Positions 29,574 through 42,521 of a DNA stretch of 64,000 bases are shown here, piece after piece. The DNA comes from Leptodontidium sp. MPI-SDFR-AT-0119 (Eukaryota; Ascomycota; Leotiomycetes; Helotiales; Leptodontidiaceae): contig JAHLEZ010000042.1 in the NCBI GenBank assembly GCA_020726505.1, positions 306,656 through 370,655 of the forward strand. The letters run 5' to 3'. The position numbers and the translations under genes are program-made. The notes under the pieces were generated by a model that was given only the letters and a program-made list of their open reading frames with translations, ran no database searches and was not told where the DNA came from. Position 1 is the first letter of the stretch. Each line of letters starts with the position of its first letter.

Positions 29574-31483
29574 ATGAAGCCTAATTAGACTGAGTACGAC
29601 GTTGTGCAAGCTCTTGATGAGGTCGCAAATGGCAACTCATTACGAAAGGCTGCACGTGGGTGGGGGATTTCTAGGTGTAACTTCAAGGCCGGCTACAGAA
29701 CCCAACTAACTATCAAGAAGCCGCCAGTTACTTGCAAAGGCTTCCGACGATACTAGAAGAGCGTCTTACATAAGGATTTTGACCTAAGAGACCCTCGGAC
29801 ATAGTGTCACTCACTCGCAGGTCAGGATTTTTGGAGAGCGACTTGTGCGATTCAAGGGGACCACCGACCACTAGGAAAACGTTGGGTTCATCGGTTTTTC
29901 AAGCAAAATTCTGTGCTCAGTACTAAAAGGCAAAGTATCATTGATTCTGTACGGGTGAATAACGCTACAACCGATGTTAATAAGGATTAGTTCCAGAAAG
30001 TAGTAATTCCGGCTATCAGAGCTATTCCACTAGAGAATCGATGGGATATGGACGAGGCAGGGGTTATGGAAGGTCAAGTACTTAATGGATTTGTCGTTGG
30101 CTATACAAATCGACGTTTTGTATAGCGCAAATAGCCTGGCTCACGAAGTTGGACGTTATTTATTAAAGCTGTCTCCACTATAGGCGACAAACCCACTCCA
30201 CTTGTGATATATAAGGGGAAATCGGCCCGACAACAGCGGTTTCCAGCCGATTTGAGTGTATTCGAGTCGTGGCACTTTACAGCTACAGAGAATGGGTGGA
30301 CTACCAACAACACAGCTCTAGAGTGGCTTGAGGTGTTTATACCTCAGACCGAACCACGTGATCATTCACCACGACTCCTCATTTTAGACGGCTATGGAAG
30401 TCACGAAATAACAGAGTATATGTGGAAAGATGCTTAGAGCATTAATATATACCTTCTTTTTTTTTTTTACCTCCACATACGTCACACGTCTTACAACCTT
30501 TAGATTTGTCGATGTTCTCTCCTCTCGAGACGGCCTACCGAAAGGAGCCCTCACTACTAGTATCACTCTCCGATTCTACACCAATTGGCAATCGTAACTT
30601 CCTTTTTTGCTATCAAAAGGCACGAGAAAGCGCTATAACACCTGAAAATATCAAAGCTGGTTGGAAAGCTACTGGCCTATGGCCGGTCACTATGGACAAA
30701 CCTCTTATGAGTCGATTACTATTGGAAAACAGCAATCAAGCTCTTGATTCTACTCCTCAGAAGGAGCCAGAGGTTTATTGCCAATTCTATATCGTCTATT
30801 ACGTGGAACACTCCAAAAGCGGGCAAAGAACTACGTCAACAGGTAGACCAAATGGCCCAATCTGTAAACGACGATCTTCCAGACTTCCAACGCGTCATCT
30901 ACTATTCAGGAAGGCTATCAAGGCGTTTGATAGAAAGGATTTTGCTTTAGGGCAAGCAGAGATGCGAATACAACAACTAGAAGCTAGGCTAGACCAACTA
31001 CAGCCTCGGAAACTTAGGAAGGTTCGGACTAGCCCAAATTCAAGGTTCGCAGACGTCAAGGCTATCGAGTTCATCGTGGAACCCTTCAAGGCAGTACTAT
31101 CTCAGATCCAATCAATGTCGCTTACCGAATTCGCCACTCTGATAGAACTCATATATTTAATAGTTAGGTCTCCAGAAATAGCTCTTGACATACTCCTCGA
31201 ATGTCTAGAACCCGTGGCACCAAAAATTCTTTCTGGAGACCCAGAATCAATTGAACGCTTTGTCCGAAATCTTTTTGGGATATCCCCGGATCATATTGAC
31301 GAGACAGCTCACTCACAAAAGCCCAGACAAAGATTCCTAACTTTGAAACACTCTAGTAACTCAGAAGGCTACCCAATAGTTGGAAATCTACTCCGGATTG
31401 ATAGGCCAGTGAACTCGCTCGCATCTTCAAATCATGTGCGCTTAACGTCAGCGAGTTCTCCAAGCAACACTACCACGACGTAG
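29574..31483 (+). pseudogene. Pogo/Fot1-like DDE transposase, degraded, with unusual C-terminus
   Basis: An ATG at 29574 opens a helix-turn-helix start (EYDVVQALDEVANGNSLRKA), then TAG codons and frame changes. Catalytic blocks are recognisable: MDEAGVMEG (about 30050, first Asp), LLILDGYGSHEITEYMW (about 30380, second Asp), then, after a T-rich stretch, the region leading into MFSPLETAYRKE (about 30510, third Asp region). From 30506 the frame is open to 31483. It includes ITPENIKAGWKATGLWPV and a coiled coil typical of the family, but its last 130 residues do not resemble the usual transposase tail. TIRs were not found. Confidence 0.75.
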
Positions 31484-36287: not shown

Positions 36288-37309
36288 TTACAATGCTGCC
36301 ATACAGATACTATCACCATCCATATCTGCGTTCTTCTGCAAGAATTCTTGACACTCTTTGATCCTGAGCTCCAACTCGTGATTATCCATGACTGGCACAT
36401 TTTTATAAGCGGCACTTAAGTCTGCAGTAATGGCATGTTTGACCTCGACGATTGAGCTGTATCTTTTTCTCCAGCAATTCTGGATGACTTCGCCAAAAAT
36501 CACGCCATGTGTGGACGGAAAATCATTCCAGAAGAACCTCTGCACTTGATCTACCGCGTCCTGAAGCGGCTCAGTTCCTGTCCCAATCGCGAAGATACAA
36601 GAGCCAATGGCTAGCTGCTCGCTGCTACAACTAGCCATACACGGCTGGAAGGTCTTCAAGTCGGAAACTTGAGAGAATCCTGGGGTTGCGGTTCGAAGTC
36701 GCTCACCAGGTCTGACCGTAGCGTCGAAATCGCAAAGCTTGACATGGTCTTCTTTGGTAAGCAAGATGTTTGAGGGTCGTAGATCGCCATGAATGTATCC
36801 AAGCTCTTCCAGATACGCTTCTGCGCTGACGAGTTGTGCGGTCCAACGGATCGCGGTACTCTCGCTGACCGGTTCTTTCTCTCGGTTTCTGTTTCGAAAC
36901 TCGAGTATTGTTGCAAGCCGTTCCAGAAATATACCTTCCGGAATGGCTAGTATACAACGGAGGAGATTGGGATGTTTGAATTTACGCTCATTCAGGACTT
37001 CGTAGATGGCCTTTTCGTGATCAAGTGATTCAATCCCCCCGGCATGATCCGCAATGTCAGTCGTGTCAGGATTGTTGTAGCGAATAGGAACCTTCAAAAC
37101 GACAGCCGAATTAATGACATACTTCGTACAGGTTGAAACTATTACGGATTTCGCGTCCGTGCACCCGTCGAATCTTCTACCAAGAACAGGGGGTATAGAC
37201 CAATAGAAGGTCAAGATTTCACTGCTTTTACGAAGTATCCCTTTTAGGTCCAAAAAAAGTCTGGGAAGCACAGACGTAAAATCCGGATTAGTTTCCACCT
37301 GTGCGAAGT
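36288..37309 (-). pseudogene. Protein kinase-like gene, 5' end cut off by a transposon
   Basis: A 337-codon frame ends at 36288. Kinase landmarks: AVVLKVP with the likely ATP lysine (residue 69 counted from the GTG at 37298), YIHGDLRPSNILL in place of HRD..N (catalytic Asp172 and Asn177 present, Arg replaced by Gly), and LCDFDA in place of DFG (Asp190 present, Gly replaced by Asp). The altered motifs are typical of divergent fungal kinase-like proteins. There is no ATG in the first 200 codons on this side. The frame runs open to the TA at 37309-37310, where the transposon begins. Across the element, at 42520 and upwards, the same strand stays open in the matching frame for about 30 codons. 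The simplest reading is that the element inserted into this gene. Confidence 0.75.
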
Positions 37310-37310
37310 A

Positions 37311-38263
37311 AGAGACGTCCCAGTGAAGCGAAAATCCCTGCCGACCGAAACGCGACCCCTGTCAGTCGAACAAAAATAATTAATTTATTAACACAGAGCA
37401 ACTATCCTGTATCCCTGGTGTGTCAGTCTGATCTATTACTTCTACGGTCTTATAGACGTAATGTAGCTTTGTTATATCTTAGACCAGGGTTAATTGGTTG
37501 CAGCATGAATATATTCTACATTAGAGAGTTTTCCGACTGCCATTTCTCTATAACGTTACAATTCAACTCCACGCCATCTTTATAACTGTGAAATGATAGT
37601 GAATTTAGAATAGCTACACTAATTCATATATAAATGGTTGTTCATTGTTTACTTCAAAGGGAGGCTAAACTATGAAGAGTTTACTACAATGGGTCCGCAT
37701 CACCTGATGTCGGCTTTGAGGTTGTGCGACAAGTCAGCCTTAGCCACAGTCAGCCACAGACGTTTGAGCCACAACCACTTTTCCGGCTGACAAGCCCTTT
37801 CAGAGTCATTGATTTGGATCAACGTTTTGAATTGCTAAAATTTCAACACAGAATAATGTTTCTCTATACCTGATGCCCTGATCTCATCTATTGCATCGTC
37901 TCGTTCATAGCTACAGTACGAGTTCTTTTCCCTATGACTTTGGATGGAGCTGTTCCGCTACGTTTTGAGACCGGTCGCCCTCTGACTGCGATAGTTTCTG
38001 TATCTTTTATATCACGCTTTTGCTGTGCCTGAACAATGACCTCGTAACTGAGGACTTTAGTATTACCTATATTAATATACGGGTGATTTTCTCGTTATTC
38101 TGCTCGAAGAATAATAAGTTTTCATCCAAAAGAATCGCTCGCTTAGCAAAAGCATTCTCGACCGTATCTGTTATCTTCTGGATACTTAATTTAGTGTGAG
38201 TATCAACTACCTCCTGGCTTATAAGGCTCATTTCAACTTTTCTGCGTAGAGAAACTAGGTTGT
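37311..38263 (-). repeat. Left inverted arm: 3' end of a pogo-like copy
   Basis: Reverse-complement homologous to 41455-42519. It contains the last part of a transposase (THTKLSIQKITDTVENAFA region, about 38200-38130, with stops), CAGCCACAG subterminal repeats (about 37740-37780) and the terminal repeat. Many point differences and small gaps separate the arms, so they are not a fresh duplication. Confidence 0.8.
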
Positions 38264-39916
38264 CTACAGCGTGCCGGTGGCCACCACCCAGAGCCGCACC
38301 GTCTTATCCCCTGACGCAGACGCCAGCAGCCTCGAGTCGGGCGAGAAGGCCACCGACCTCACCCAGCTGCTATGCCCCTTAAGCGTCTGCTGCAGCTCGC
38401 CGGTGGCCGCGTTCCAGAGCCGCACCGTCTTATCCCCTGACGCCGACGCCAGCAGCCTCGAGTTGGGCGAGAAGGCCACTGACCAGACCGAGCTGCTATG
38501 CCCCTTGAGCGTCTGCTGCAGCGCGCCAGTGGCCGCGTTCCAGAGCCGCACCGTCTTGTCCTCTGACGCCGACGCCAGCAGCCTCGAGTCAGGCGAGAAG
38601 GCCACGGTGTGCCCCTCGAGCGTCTGCTGCAGCGCGCCGGTGGCCGCGTTCCAGAGCCGTACCGTCTTGTCCCCTGACGCCGACGCCAGCAGCCTCGAGT
38701 CGGGCGAGAAGGCCACCGAGCTGACCCAGCTGCTGTGCCCCACGAGCGCCTGCTGCAGCTTGCCGGTGGCCGCGTTCCAGAGCCGCACCGTCTTATCCCC
38801 TGACGCCGACGCCAGCAGCTTCGAGTTAGGCGAGAAGGCTACCGAGTAGACCGAGCTGCTGTGCCCCTCGAGCGTCTGCTGTAGCTCGCCGGTGGCCGCG
38901 TTCCAGAGCCGTACCGTCTTATCCTCTGACGCCGACGCCAGCAGCCTCGAGTTGGGCGAGAAGGCCACTGACCAGACCCAGCCGCTATGCCCCTCGAGCG
39001 TCCGCTGCAGCTCGCCGGTGGCTGCGTTCCAGAGCCGTACCGTCTCGTCCTCTGACGCCGACGCCAGCAGCCTCGAGTTGGGCGAGAAGGCCACCGACCA
39101 GACCGAGCCGCTGTGCCCCTCGAGCGTCTGCTGCTGCGCGCCTAACCGCTTGGCATAATTCAAGGTAGCCTGTGAAGGTTCGTCGAGTCGGTCTTTCCAT
39201 TCGCGGTTCAGCCTTCGGAATGCGTTCTCCTTCCCCTCGCCATAGATAACCGGTATTGAGATGTCGAAGATTCCTAGCAGGGAGTAAGCAAGGTCTTCTT
39301 CACGCTTGGTATCCCGATTTCGTGTCCATAATACTCGCTCGTCGAAGCTGAACCTAAAAAGAGGGTTGCCTCGAAGAGCGGAAACCGGAATATCCGTTAT
39401 CTTATGAAGCTGCCCCTCTAATGATTTCTTATCACCGAGTCGGTTGCCATTCGAGCAGAAGAAGTCGACCGATGATGGCGCAATAAGCTCTTGAAGTGTC
39501 CAACCACGGGTAAACCATCGACTGTTCCTAAAAGCTGCTTCCCACGGCTGTAAAGACAGGTCGATTTGATCATCTGTCGAAATATCTGTCAGATACGCGT
39601 AGCATTTTGCCGCTTTGCGATACCAGCGAAACATGGAGTTGATAGCTTCCGAAAGCTCCCGGTCGCTCGATTTGTTAATACAGCAAGTGTCCACCCAGAA
39701 GTATTGTAGGCCATCGCGAGCGGCCTGCTGTCCACAGAACCGAAGCTTTTTATATCCGTCTTTCGTCTTCGCAGAGCTATCCTTTAGGTCCTCAAAGTTA
39801 ACCTCTTCATCATCTTCTCCCCAGGTGTGTGAAAGTATCGCATAAGGCGTTGTGGGGGAGATAATATCTTTCGTGAGGCTAATTTTGCCATTTTCTTCCA
39901 GCTTCAGAAGCCGCAT
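38264..39916 (-). CDS. HET domain fused directly to seven WD40 repeats, 550 aa
   Basis: Uninterrupted single exon. The HET domain occupies about residues 1-230: AILSHTWG (26-33), FWVDTCCINK (73-82), RGWTLQELIAP (137-147), REEDLAYSLLGIFDI (205-219). HET domains trigger heterokaryon-incompatibility cell death in filamentous ascomycetes. In the Podospora HNWD family the order is HET-NACHT-WD40. Here a linker of about 20 residues joins the HET part straight to WD40 repeats (261-550), with no P-loop or NACHT motif. The start MRLLKL is typical of HET proteins. The stop lies at the junction with the left transposon arm, so the original C-terminus may be lost (the last repeat ends in VVATGTL instead of NAATGEL). 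Seven repeats suffice for one beta-propeller. Function is inferred from the family. Confidence 0.9.
   Translation of the reverse strand: MRLLKLEENGKISLTKDIISPTTPYAILSHTWGEDDEEVNFEDLKDSSAKTKDGYKKLRFCGQQAARDGLQYFWVDTCCINKSSDRELSEAINSMFRWYRKAAKCYAYLTDISTDDQIDLSLQPWEAAFRNSRWFTRGWTLQELIAPSSVDFFCSNGNRLGDKKSLEGQLHKITDIPVSALRGNPLFRFSFDERVLWTRNRDTKREEDLAYSLLGIFDISIPVIYGEGKENAFRRLNREWKDRLDEPSQATLNYAKRLGAQQQTLEGHSGSVWSVAFSPNSRLLASASEDETVRLWNAATGELQRTLEGHSGWVWSVAFSPNSRLLASASEDKTVRLWNAATGELQQTLEGHSSSVYSVAFSPNSKLLASASGDKTVRLWNAATGKLQQALVGHSSWVSSVAFSPDSRLLASASGDKTVRLWNAATGALQQTLEGHTVAFSPDSRLLASASEDKTVRLWNAATGALQQTLKGHSSSVWSVAFSPNSRLLASASGDKTVRLWNAATGELQQTLKGHSSWVRSVAFSPDSRLLASASGDKTVRLWVVATGTL
38267..39136 (-). 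repeat. Seven near-identical WD40 coding repeats (126-bp units)
   Basis: Six 42-residue units and one 35-residue unit. The core SVAFSPxSRLLASAS and DKTVRLWNAATG is nearly invariant. Variation is concentrated after GHS (GS, GW, SS, SW), in the following V-[WYSR]-S, and at E/G before DKT. The fifth unit lacks the seven residues between GH and VAFSP. High identity of adjacent units implies recent expansion or gene conversion. Confidence 0.92.
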
Positions 39917-40152
39917 CTGAGCCTGGGCATTAATCGGTTTGTACGTATGGAATTCGATAAAGCAAGAGCTCTAGGTGGGAGTGCTTGGTTGAGGAGGTAT
40001 ATGATCCAGCAAGGAATCGTAAGTTGGCGGAGACGGGGTCTGGTTTGAAGAGGTTGATCAAAGGTTTACGGAGGTAAGGCTGAGGCTCCAGATGCGTGCC
40101 ATCGGTAAGCTAAGAATAGATCCATCACGTGACATGAGGCCAGGTATCCTCA

Positions 40153-41892
40153 ATGCGAATTGGGAAGGATGGGCTTGAACATCTGCACAAGCAGCAAAGC
40201 GTTATGGCGGCCGCAAGCCCGGACCCGGCCAAAGTCGTTCTCGAAAGGATCGGACACTCTCCAGAGAACACTTATGCTGCTCTGTGCGAACTCAGTGGAG
40301 TTCCTGCGACAACCTTGTGGCATCGCGATCATGGACGAATGTCAATTCAACAGCGGGCAGCCATGCAGCAACGCCTTAGCCCACAAGAAGAGAAAGCGCT
40401 GGTAAGTTATCTTCTTCGAATGTCAGCTAACGGGTATCCATTGCCTGTCAAATTTGCAAGGAATCTAGCACATGTTATCATGCTTCAGCGTTCCTCCATT
40501 TTCCAGATTCCCGCGGCCGATCGTAACGATATCAAACCTCCTGGAAAGAATTGGCCACAGGCCTTCTGTAAACGCCACCCAGAGCTTAAAGCTATGCGAA
40601 TGAAAGCAATAGATTGGGATAGACATGATCGTCATACATACAATAAAGTTGTAGACTGGTTCACCGTAATTGGGAAAGAGCTAGCGAGCCCTGTAGTTCT
40701 CGCCGAAAATACATACAACATGGATGAGACAGGTGTTCTTCTCAGTGTCCTCAACTCGCTCAAGGTCCTCGTAGGCAGGCATGAGTTGAAGACACATAGA
40801 GGGGCAGGTGTAAAACGAACCTTGATCACTGCAATAGAGTGTGTCTCTTCAGACGGTCGGTATCTCAACCCTCTGATCATTTGGCCTGCTGCCACCCACA
40901 GGAGCACTTGGACAACTCATCCTACCCCGGGATGGCATTATGGTCACTCCGACAGTGGATATACAGATACAACGATCAGTCTGTACTGGATTCGACACGT
41001 TTTCGACCCTCAGACAAAAGAACGAGCGAATGGCAAGCCCCGCGTATTGATAAACGATGGATTCGGCACCCACGAATCGTTGGAGCTGATGAAGTTCTGC
41101 TTCGAAAACAGTATAATCCTCTGTCGCCTTCCCTCGCACACTTCCCATAAACTCCAACCTTGTGATGTCGGTGTATTTGGCCCATTGAAGATCGCGTATC
41201 GTGAGGAGGTCGAACGATTATATCGAGGAGGTGCAAACATGATCGGAAAGCAGCACTTTACTCTTCTGTACGATCGCGCACGACGTAAAGCAATAAATTC
41301 TCGAAACATTATCTCGGGGTGGTCGAAGACAGGACTTCGCCCATTTAATCCAGAGCGAGTGCTAAAAGAGATCCAGAAGCCAGAGGAGGTGAGGGTCGTC
41401 AAGAGTGAGGGCGATGCCACCCTCCATTATCTCGAGACTCCGAAGACTCCAACGACCTTTGAAAATTTAGCTTCTCTGCGCAAAAACGTTGAGATGAGCC
41501 TTAGACGTCAGGATGTACTCGATACTCACACTAAACTAAGCATCCAGAAGATAGCAGATGCCGCCGAGAATGCTTTTGCTGAGCGAGCAATTCTTCTGGA
41601 CGAGAACTTGTTGCTCTTCGAGCAGAACAACGAGAAAACAACCCGTATATCAATAAAGGCGACTGTTGTAGGTACTGCTAAAGTTATGAGTTACGAGGAC
41701 ATTGTTGAGGCACAACAAAAACGTGACATGAAAGATGCAGAGACTGTCGCAGTCAGAGGACGGCGGACAAAGCGTAATGGAGCTCCGTCCAAAATCATAG
41801 GGAAAAGAACGCGTAGCCGCGAACGAGAAGAAGCATTAGATGAAATCAGGGCATCAGGTATGGAGGAATATTGTTCGGTATTGAAATTTTAG
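40153..41892 (+). CDS. Pogo/Fot1-like DDE transposase, uninterrupted, 579 aa
   Basis: Open frame without stops. The N-terminus has a Psq-type helix-turn-helix (ENTYAALCELSGVPATTLW) and a CENP-B-type DNA-binding block (SPQEEKALVSYLLRMSANGY). The DDE core shows YNMDETGVLL (first Asp), LINDGFGTHES (second Asp) and SHTSHKLQPCDVGVFGPLK (third Asp). The C-terminal part has a coiled coil (ERAILLDENLLLFEQNNEKT) and a basic tail (GRRTKRNGAPSKIIGKRTRS). A start at MAAASPDP (about 40204) is equally plausible, since the first 17 residues do not look conserved. All three catalytic Asp are present, so the enzyme may be active. It is divergent from the HET-WD gene, 236 bp apart. Confidence 0.92.
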   Translation: MRIGKDGLEHLHKQQSVMAAASPDPAKVVLERIGHSPENTYAALCELSGVPATTLWHRDHGRMSIQQRAAMQQRLSPQEEKALVSYLLRMSANGYPLPVKFARNLAHVIMLQRSSIFQIPAADRNDIKPPGKNWPQAFCKRHPELKAMRMKAIDWDRHDRHTYNKVVDWFTVIGKELASPVVLAENTYNMDETGVLLSVLNSLKVLVGRHELKTHRGAGVKRTLITAIECVSSDGRYLNPLIIWPAATHRSTWTTHPTPGWHYGHSDSGYTDTTISLYWIRHVFDPQTKERANGKPRVLINDGFGTHESLELMKFCFENSIILCRLPSHTSHKLQPCDVGVFGPLKIAYREEVERLYRGGANMIGKQHFTLLYDRARRKAINSRNIISGWSKTGLRPFNPERVLKEIQKPEEVRVVKSEGDATLHYLETPKTPTTFENLASLRKNVEMSLRRQDVLDTHTKLSIQKIADAAENAFAERAILLDENLLLFEQNNEKTTRISIKATVVGTAKVMSYEDIVEAQQKRDMKDAETVAVRGRRTKRNGAPSKIIGKRTRSREREEALDEIRASGMEEYCSVLKF

Positions 41893-42519
41893 CAATTCAA
41901 AATCAGAATCAGAATCAAACAATGACTGCTTGGAAGGGGAGTGCTGAGAAGGTAGAATTGTGTCATCTTGAAGTAGGGGTCAGCCGAAAAAGGTTTCCGA
42001 AAAATGGGCAGTCAGCCTGAAATTGGGAAGAAAGTGGCTGTCAGAGCTGTGGCTCAAAACGGCTGTGGCTCTAAATCGGCTGTCGTCGTGGCTGTGGCTG
42101 ACCTGTGGCTGACTGTGGCTGCCCCCCGCAAAACTTCGCAAAGTCGGCCCCGCAGCAGCAAAATCTTCATAACTTGGCATCCCTTTGAATAAAACAATCA
42201 ATGAACATTTATATGTCAATTGGTGCAGCCGATCTAAGTAATTTAGAATTTAACAGTCATAAAGATGTCGTTGAGATATATTATAACGCTATAGAGAAGA
42301 GGGACTTAGGAGACTAGCTATATTCAGACTGTATTCAATTCACCCTTTTGCAAGGTATAATGAAGCCGTTTTGTGTATATAAAATCTTAGAAGCAGAAAA
42401 TCAGATTAGCTAATCAGAAACACGGAAAAGGTGTTCTGTGTTAATTAATTAAATATTTTGTTGTACTTACAGGGGTCCGTTTCGGTCTGCTGGGATTTTC
42501 GCTTGGCAGGGACCTCTCT
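41455..42519 (+). repeat. Right inverted arm: transposase 3' end to terminus
   Basis: Covers the last 145 codons of the intact transposase, a CTGTGGCTG-rich subterminal block (about 42020-42130) and the terminal repeat. Matches the left arm in inverted orientation throughout, including outside the coding part. Confidence 0.8.
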
Positions 42520-42521
42520 TA

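What the first reader, a model, noticed from the sequence alone, without database searches (positions are those of the whole stretch)
37311..42519. Pogo-like transposon that appears to carry a HET-WD40 allorecognition gene as cargo
Seen: inverted termini starting AGAGASGTCCC (45 of 52 aligned columns equal), TA at both outer borders, an uninterrupted DDE transposase and, between the arms, an uninterrupted HET-WD40 gene. Known: pogo/Fot1 elements insert at TA and normally carry only a transposase; HET-WD-type genes decide vegetative incompatibility. Inference: two element copies trapped the gene, and since both outer ends are transposase-recognised termini, the 5.2-kb unit could move together. 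A mobile incompatibility gene would spread self/non-self specificities between loci or strains.
Basis: partly seen in the sequence, partly recalled or inferred. Interest (0 to 1): 0.92.

Follow-up and report, generated by a model that had tools for sequence, protein, structure and literature searches.

The report
Transposon family carrying fungal self-recognition genes
In this fungal genome a family of cut-and-paste transposons repeatedly carries the cell-death genes that fungi use to tell self from non-self, and the reported element is a member that still has an open transposase gene, so part of the self/non-self repertoire may have been spread by jumping DNA.

Summary
In detail: TA borders, inverted termini (45 of 52 columns), an open DD35D pogo-type transposase and a divergent, open HET-WD40 gene. 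It is not a one-off trap. No terminus lies between HET gene and transposase. The same head-to-head layout recurs at four other transposase loci, 434-536 bp apart; the three read carry HET-NB-ARC-TPR or HET-NACHT cargo. A sister terminus has 54 pattern matches, control 0. It lies 638-960 bp upstream of 13 of 150 listed HET genes, facing inward; 0 of 5000 permutations reach that in either test. Nine of 12 facing end pairs enclose a HET gene; 0 of 39 in an ordinary pogo family of the same genome. One complete 5.4-kb element holds only HET-NACHT and WD40 frames. Similarity among copies stops at the TA. So HET/NLR genes are recurrent cargo, often without transposase. Recent mobility, empty sites and incompatibility function are not shown; copies are diverged, and two of six open close transposases have no listed HET gene beside them. 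Nine literature searches listed no report of such a family.

The parts
37309..37362 (+). left terminus: TA (37309-37310) plus inverted repeat AGAGACGTCCC...
   Evidence: 45 of 52 columns equal to the right terminus; 75% over 60 bp to a third copy on C20
37311..38264 (-). left arm: inverted 3' end of a transposase element, with decayed codons for transposase residues 437-501 and 506-567 (37879-38264)
38264..39916 (-). cargo: HET-WD40 gene, 550 aa (HET region 39197-39916, 7.1 WD40 units at 38267-39142); stop codon at the arm junction
40091..40104 (.). junction between HET promoter side and transposase 5' side; no terminus present
   Evidence: paralog L004 matches up to 40090, transposase copy L002 from 40105; no terminus match here
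40153..41892 (+). pogo-type DDE_1 transposase, 579 aa, D191-D302-D338 (DD35D)
41461..42521 (+). right arm: transposase 3' codons, 3' region with short CTGTGGCTGAC-type repeats, terminus
42468..42521 (-). right terminus: AGAGAGGTCCC... plus TA (42520-42521)

Best explanation
The 5.2-kb unit is a pogo-type (Tc1/mariner, DD35D) transposon of a family with the layout terminus - [transposase] - HET-type receptor gene - inverted terminus, the two genes head to head. The transposase recognises the two outer inverted termini, excises what lies between and reinserts it at TA, so the HET/NLR gene moves with it. Many members have the HET/NLR gene and both ends but no room for a transposase, and would be moved in trans by transposase-bearing relatives. 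The cargo (HET-WD40 here; HET-NACHT-WD40 and HET-NB-ARC-TPR elsewhere) would trigger cell death on meeting a partner protein, as HET-E-type receptors do in Podospora. Shown: anatomy, recurrence, TA boundaries, open frames, and low dN/dS in the sister subfamily. Inferred: transposition as a unit, trans-mobilisation, and incompatibility function.
For: Head-to-head layout: 6 of 23 close transposase hits have a divergent HET gene within 2 kb upstream (5 of them at 237-536 bp), against 0 of 52 distant pogo hits. 13 of 150 listed HET genes, on 8 contigs, have an inward-facing end 638-960 bp upstream (13 same versus 1 opposite orientation at 300-1100 bp); contig-shift null mean 0.11, maximum 4; local-jitter null mean 0.77, maximum 6; 0 of 5000 reach 13 in either. 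9 of 12 facing end pairs hold a HET gene; ordinary pogo family of the same genome: 0 of 39 pairs, and 0 of 150 HET genes behind an inward end (100 of 143 ends were listed and used). Two members read complete: C14:196923-204842 with transposase and HET-NB-ARC-TPR, and C18:749845-755226 with HET-NACHT and WD40 frames only. HET promoter DNA of the three transposase-bearing members read is 72-87% alike with the HET upstream DNA of three transposase-less ones. Ten ends: 85% identity inside, 25% outside the TA. dN/dS 0.11-0.13 for the transposase of three members, 0.22 for the HET domain of two.
Against: No empty site or polymorphism could be examined, and no near-identical members were seen: arms within elements are 69-85% alike, the transposases of the three sister members 92-94% and the nearest HET pair 93%, so activity today is unproven. 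Two of six open close transposases (C13:1075374, C37:181926) have no listed HET gene within 6 kb of their start. The window-type terminus has one other clear copy (C20), whose element is unresolved, with no transposase match in the flank held. The closest HET-WD40 paralogs of the window gene (L003, L004) show no window-type terminus in the 1.5-kb flanks held. C14:151815 lacks a found right end and the C37 member its left terminus. 3 of 12 end pairs hold no listed HET gene, three pairs use an arm without a terminus match, and two are 13.9 and 15.4 kb long and may not be single elements. Three of the 13 HET genes are on C2 and four on C14, so they are not fully independent. One genome only; no contig length was shared between the best listed public relatives of transposase and HET-WD40.
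Confidence: 0.75

Rival explanations
1. Two-copy trap: in the window a HET-WD40 gene was enclosed by a truncated inverted copy and a second copy that lost its 5' end; the unit is incidental and the family pattern is a separate matter.
For: The left arm keeps transposase codons, so it derives from a transposase-bearing copy. HET and transposase sides join abruptly at 40090-40105, and transposase copy L002 ends at the same point beside unrelated DNA. Only one whole unit of this kind in the genome.
Against: The same divergent order and similar spacing occur at four other transposase loci, which chance trapping does not predict.
Confidence: 0.3
2. HET genes multiplied by ordinary gene or segmental duplication; an old terminus sat in the ancestral HET promoter and was copied along.
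For: 11 of the 13 terminus-linked HET genes are among the 42 best of 150 hits to one member (which is itself one of the 13), so they are related.
Against: Opposite-facing ends 2-7 kb downstream (12 in those bins, the window's own included), 9 of 12 end pairs with a HET inside, and alignments between copies that stop at the TA.
Confidence: 0.08
3. The elements and HET genes are merely enriched in the same repeat-rich contigs.
For: C14 and C37 are dense in both.
Against: Contig-preserving and local-jitter nulls fail, orientation is 13 to 1, and the ordinary pogo family in the same genome shows no such link.
Confidence: 0.03
4. Fossil family: the units once moved but are now dead or domesticated, the transposase kept as a host gene paired with a HET gene.
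For: No near-identical members; some copies carry many TAG/TAA stops and RIP-like indices.
Against: Six close transposase loci, the window's included, remain open over more than 500 residues, with dN/dS 0.11-0.13 among three; but purifying selection also fits domestication.
Confidence: 0.35

Closest known systems
pogo/Fot1 group of Tc1/mariner transposons
   Same: DDE_1 transposase with DD35D and TA borders; the ordinary pogo members of this genome also have termini that begin TAACGTC
   Different: 5-8 kb instead of about 0.8 or 1.8 kb, arms of about 420-950 bp, a HET/NLR gene inside, no terminus between HET and transposase
HNWD / HET-E-type fungal NLRs (Podospora het-d, het-e, het-r)
   Same: HET-NACHT-WD40 layout in the C18 element and 126-bp WD units (architecture as described in PMC12222747, passages read)
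   Different: lie inside elements with inverted termini; the window gene has no room for NACHT; the passages shown from four Podospora papers report no such element, one reports a transposon relic beside a pseudogene
Starship giant transposons
   Same: mobile elements of ascomycetes that can carry NLR genes (PMC12134995, passages)
   Different: Starships are giant and moved by a tyrosine recombinase; here 5-8 kb with a DDE transposase
ToxhAT and gene-capturing (Pack-type) DNA transposons
   Same: DNA transposons that carry host genes (ToxhAT from abstract starts listed; Pack-type recalled)
   Different: there one effector gene or mixed gene fragments (recalled); here the same class of gene recurs in many members

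Membership tests
pogo/Fot1 (Tc1/mariner) | DDE_1 catalytic domain | tested here: met
   E=4.7e-29, 101.7 bits, cut-off 22
pogo/Fot1 (Tc1/mariner) | acidic triad with about 35 residues between the last two | tested here: met
   D191, D302, D338, invariant in 20 aligned sequences
pogo/Fot1 (Tc1/mariner) | N-terminal helix-turn-helix (CENP-B/Tc5 type) | tested here: inconclusive
   HTH_Tnp_Tc5 19.3 bits, cut-off 22.2; 21.4 and 19.3 in two sister transposases
pogo/Fot1 (Tc1/mariner) | TA at both borders with unrelated flanks | tested here: met
pogo/Fot1 (Tc1/mariner) | termini directly flanking the transposase gene | tested here: not met
   no terminus 5' of the window transposase. Scan of 1.5-kb flanks: best 11-13 of 18 bases in nine close loci against 11-13 in the reversed control; 18 of 18 in two (L036, L037) of seven distant loci, so the scan also misses some distant ones
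pogo/Fot1 (Tc1/mariner) | transposition activity | not testable with these tools
   no other isolates, no assay
HNWD receptor | N-terminal HET domain | tested here: met
   window HET E=5.2e-15
HNWD receptor | central NACHT | tested here: not met
   WD-type matches begin at about residue 257, right after the HET region, leaving no room in the 550-residue frame; NACHT is present in the C18, C37:255525 and C14:232975 cargos
HNWD receptor | C-terminal array of alike 42-residue WD40 units | tested here: met
   7.1 units of 126 bp, 87% matches
HNWD receptor | controls vegetative incompatibility | not testable with these tools
   needs allelic strains
Starship | tyrosine recombinase captain gene | tested here: not met
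   inside the unit only the DDE_1 transposase and HET-WD40 frames reach 200 residues; no search for a captain gene elsewhere on the contig was run

The most novel reading that the evidence does not exclude
The HET/NLR gene is a resident working part of the transposon, kept even when the transposase is lost, because killing or rejecting cells that lack the matching type favours cells that carry the element. A sizeable part of this fungus's allorecognition repertoire (18 of the 150 listed HET genes by the criteria used here) would then be transposon-borne and reshuffled by exchange of cargo.
Probability: 0.3. Interest if true: 0.95.

Novelty: new variant of a known kind. Interest (0 to 1): 0.85.

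Why it matters
How fungal genomes gain and disperse so many HET/NLR allorecognition genes is open. A small DDE transposon family with HET/NLR receptors as recurrent cargo would give a direct mechanism, explain dispersed paralogs with shared upstream DNA, and make testable predictions (empty TA sites between isolates, excision by a defined transposase, exchange of cargo on one transposase chassis). It also raises the possibility that a transposon benefits from self/non-self killing.

Tried and rejected
A second copy of the whole 5.2-kb unit in the genome: none listed. A normal 5' terminus beside the transposase: none in the window and none clearly above the reversed control in nine close relatives; the same scan found perfect termini in two of seven distant relatives only. 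The Pfam HET list was no use for the association test, because its 150 scored matches are all above 90 bits while the cargo HET domains score about 50-57, so one HET protein was used as query. The C20 copy of the window terminus stayed unresolved. Insertion into genes: the HeLo frame at C14:151815 is cut at the element border, but the right end was not found, so the other half was not seen; the DUF3723 frame at C14:196923 starts outside the element and is not interrupted. No structure prediction and no viral, phage, plasmid or metagenome scan was run. PDB sequence search for the transposase: no hit at E 0.01. Co-location and promoter duplication were rejected by the controls. Dropped before counting: two short rows (117 and 67 bp) of the 42 arm matches; matches beyond the 150 listed of 153; 43 of 143 control ends not listed.
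Full report
Observation. The window is contig C37:306656-370655 of an unnamed 77-Mb genome in 69 contigs. The best public relatives of the HET-WD40 protein (75-79% identity over nearly its whole length) come from unnamed metagenome sources; named ones include Hyphodiscus, Cadophora, Acephala, Cudoniella, Lachnellula and Bisporella, beside Penicillium and others. The host is therefore probably an ascomycete near the Helotiales (the placement of those genera is recalled). At 37309-42521 there is a TA-bounded unit with inverted termini (45 of 52 columns equal) and long inverted arms, 37309-38264 against 41461-42521. It holds an open transposase (40153-41892, +) and an open HET-WD40 gene (38264-39916, -), transcribed away from each other.

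Anatomy. The transposase is DDE_1 with D191, D302 and D338 (35 residues between the last two), invariant among 20 aligned sequences; its helix-turn-helix match is below cut-off. The left arm is the inverted 3' end of another transposase element: it contains decayed codons for residues 437-501 and 506-567. The HET-WD40 stop codon is at the arm junction, so the last of the 126-bp WD units is cut there. Between the HET gene and the transposase there is no terminus: similarity to HET paralog L004 ends at 40090, and similarity to transposase copy L002 begins at 40105. Both outer ends are therefore the transposase-3' kind of end. Arm identities of 69% (outer) and 83% (inner) say that the unit is old. 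No second copy of the whole unit was listed in the genome; its terminus recurs exactly only at C20:403656, where the element is unresolved, and at 3 mismatches at three places on C39.

The family. A search with the transposase protein listed 75 places, the number scored out of 320 candidates. Of 23 close hits (43% identity or more), 6 have a divergent HET gene within 2 kb upstream, five of them at 237-536 bp, the window's included; of 52 distant pogo hits, none. Against this, two of the six close transposases that are open over more than 500 residues (C13:1075374, C37:181926) have no listed HET gene within 6 kb of their start; an unrelated-looking HET frame lies downstream of the second. Three of the HET-linked loci were read in full or nearly so. 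C14:196923-204842 is a 7.9-kb TA-bounded element with transposase and HET-NB-ARC-TPR cargo and 82% inverted arms. C37:260.6-268.7 kb has HET and TPR frames, the stretch between them being 89% alike with the C14 one although Pfam did not call NB-ARC there; its arms are 80-85% alike and its left terminus is missing. C14:151815 has transposase and HET-NACHT cargo (NPHP3_N above cut-off, NACHT itself below); its right end was not found. Their terminus is TAACGTCCCTCCCTRCGTGCCGAGAAACCCT.

Genome-wide count. That terminus has 54 matches at up to 3 mismatches and none for the reversed control pattern; the 425-bp arm has 42 reported matches, 40 of which were used (two short ones dropped). Merged with the six window-type matches this gave 70 ends (64 without the window type), set against 150 listed HET-E-type HET hits (153 found, list cut at the best, so counts are lower bounds). 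Thirteen HET genes on eight contigs have an end 638-960 bp upstream that faces inward; twelve of the ends match the pattern and one is an arm without a matched terminus. At 300-1100 bp 13 HET genes have a same-strand end and 1 an opposite one. Shifting ends within contigs gives a mean of 0.11 (maximum 4), jittering them locally a mean of 0.77 (maximum 6); none of 5000 permutations reaches 13 in either test. Twelve neighbouring end pairs 1-16 kb apart face each other; nine hold a HET gene and three do not; two of the nine are 13.9 and 15.4 kb long and may not be single elements. Only one outward-facing pair exists. With the five transposase-linked genes this makes 18 of 150 HET genes; for one of the five (C14:255695) no ends were examined.

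Control family. Ordinary pogo elements of the same genome (terminus TAACGTCYSACCCC..., 143 ends, 100 listed and used) form 39 facing pairs, most about 0.8 or 1.8 kb long, with no HET gene inside and no HET gene behind an inward end; 1 of 150 HET genes has such an end within 5 kb, against 21 of 150 for the 64 ends of the HET-linked family.

A transposase-less member. C18:749845-755226 was read whole: exact terminus matches at both ends, 82% inverted arms, and a HET-NACHT frame (833 residues) and a WD40 frame (513 residues) that overlap in different frames, so one continuous gene would need splicing or a frameshift that was not resolved. No other frame reaches 200 residues from a start codon and no transposase match was found. 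HET-NACHT-WD40 is the layout of Podospora HNWD receptors (PMC12222747, passages read). The HET promoter DNA of the three transposase-bearing members is 72-87% alike with the HET upstream DNA that in C18, C37:255525 and C14:232975 lies close to the arm. So the two kinds of element are one lineage with and without the transposase. In ten ends, found in 12 loci by allowing 5 mismatches to the terminus, identity is 85% over 60 bp inside (the first 31 bp being selected by the pattern) and 25% over 40 bp outside (highest pair 42%); whole-locus alignments, made without the pattern, also begin or end at the TA.

Selection and age. Between the three sister members the transposase frames have dN/dS 0.11-0.13, and the HET domains of two of them 0.22. 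Copies on C69 carry many TAG and TAA codons and two have RIP-like indices. Apart from one 129-bp inverted stretch at 99% between two members, nothing near-identical was seen, so recent movement is not shown. The C14:196923 and C14:151815 members share 92% of the transposase but only about 71% of the HET region, while the latter's cargo is 76% alike with that of C18: cargo seems to have been exchanged on one chassis (inference).

Mechanism. Most likely the transposase acts on the outer termini and moves the HET/NLR gene, at TA sites, in cis or in trans (inference from anatomy and from what pogo transposases are known to do). Whether the cargo governs vegetative incompatibility is inferred from homology only.

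Prior knowledge. Nine searches of the paper library listed no paper whose title or abstract start reports HET/NLR genes as regular cargo of a DDE transposon; the listings were capped, at 20 of 1,404 and 20 of 440. Passages shown from PMC12258605, PMC12222747, PMC1805685, PMC10799480, PMC3321046 and PMC2873952 mention transposons as RIP targets, as insertions in or relics beside NWD genes, as a cause of fragmented assemblies or in pogo domestication, or not at all; no paper was read whole. PMC12134995 (passages) reports one NLR inside a Starship. The library lacks most subscription papers and holds no bioRxiv preprints, so priority cannot be claimed firmly.

Verdict. I rate this a new variant of a known kind: a DDE transposon family that repeatedly carries allorecognition receptors.

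Noticed in passing
window 29814-30706: Remains of another, distant pogo-type transposase (30-44% identity in two pieces); an ordinary-pogo terminus lies at C37:339122, i.e. window 32467.
   Followed up: no
window 36288-37298: Protein-kinase-like ORF (-) whose first possible start lies 10 bp outside the left border; its open frame runs on through the terminus to 37361, so the element may have cut or replaced its 5' end.
   Followed up: partly
L067:1208-1873: A HeLo-domain frame (profile 1-157 of 205) is cut at the border of the C14:151815 element; the other half was not found.
   Followed up: partly
L015:3-290 and 687-1100: Two ORFs near the C13 transposase end in stretches that resemble amyloid signalling motifs of fungal NLR partners (NSGLQGGIFNG, NSGFQAGNINGTVSG); the resemblance is recalled.
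   Followed up: no
L066:1459-1902: DUF3723 frame directly beside the C14 element; DUF3723 is reported as common in Starships, so the C14 cluster might lie in one.
   Followed up: no
L065:7797-8891, L066:7524-8745: TPR arrays of the HET-NB-ARC-TPR cargos consist of 126-bp units (86-89% matches), like the WD40 arrays of the other cargos.
   Followed up: no
ten element ends: The base before the target TA is C in 8 of 10 ends, hinting at a CTA preference.
   Followed up: no
L065:4992-5120 and L066:4963-5090: A 129-bp stretch upstream of the transposase is 99% alike but inverted between two members that are otherwise about 89% alike.
   Followed up: no
genome G000: The first look for the HET domain gave 828 candidates (150 scored); no comparison with other genomes was made.
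   Followed up: no
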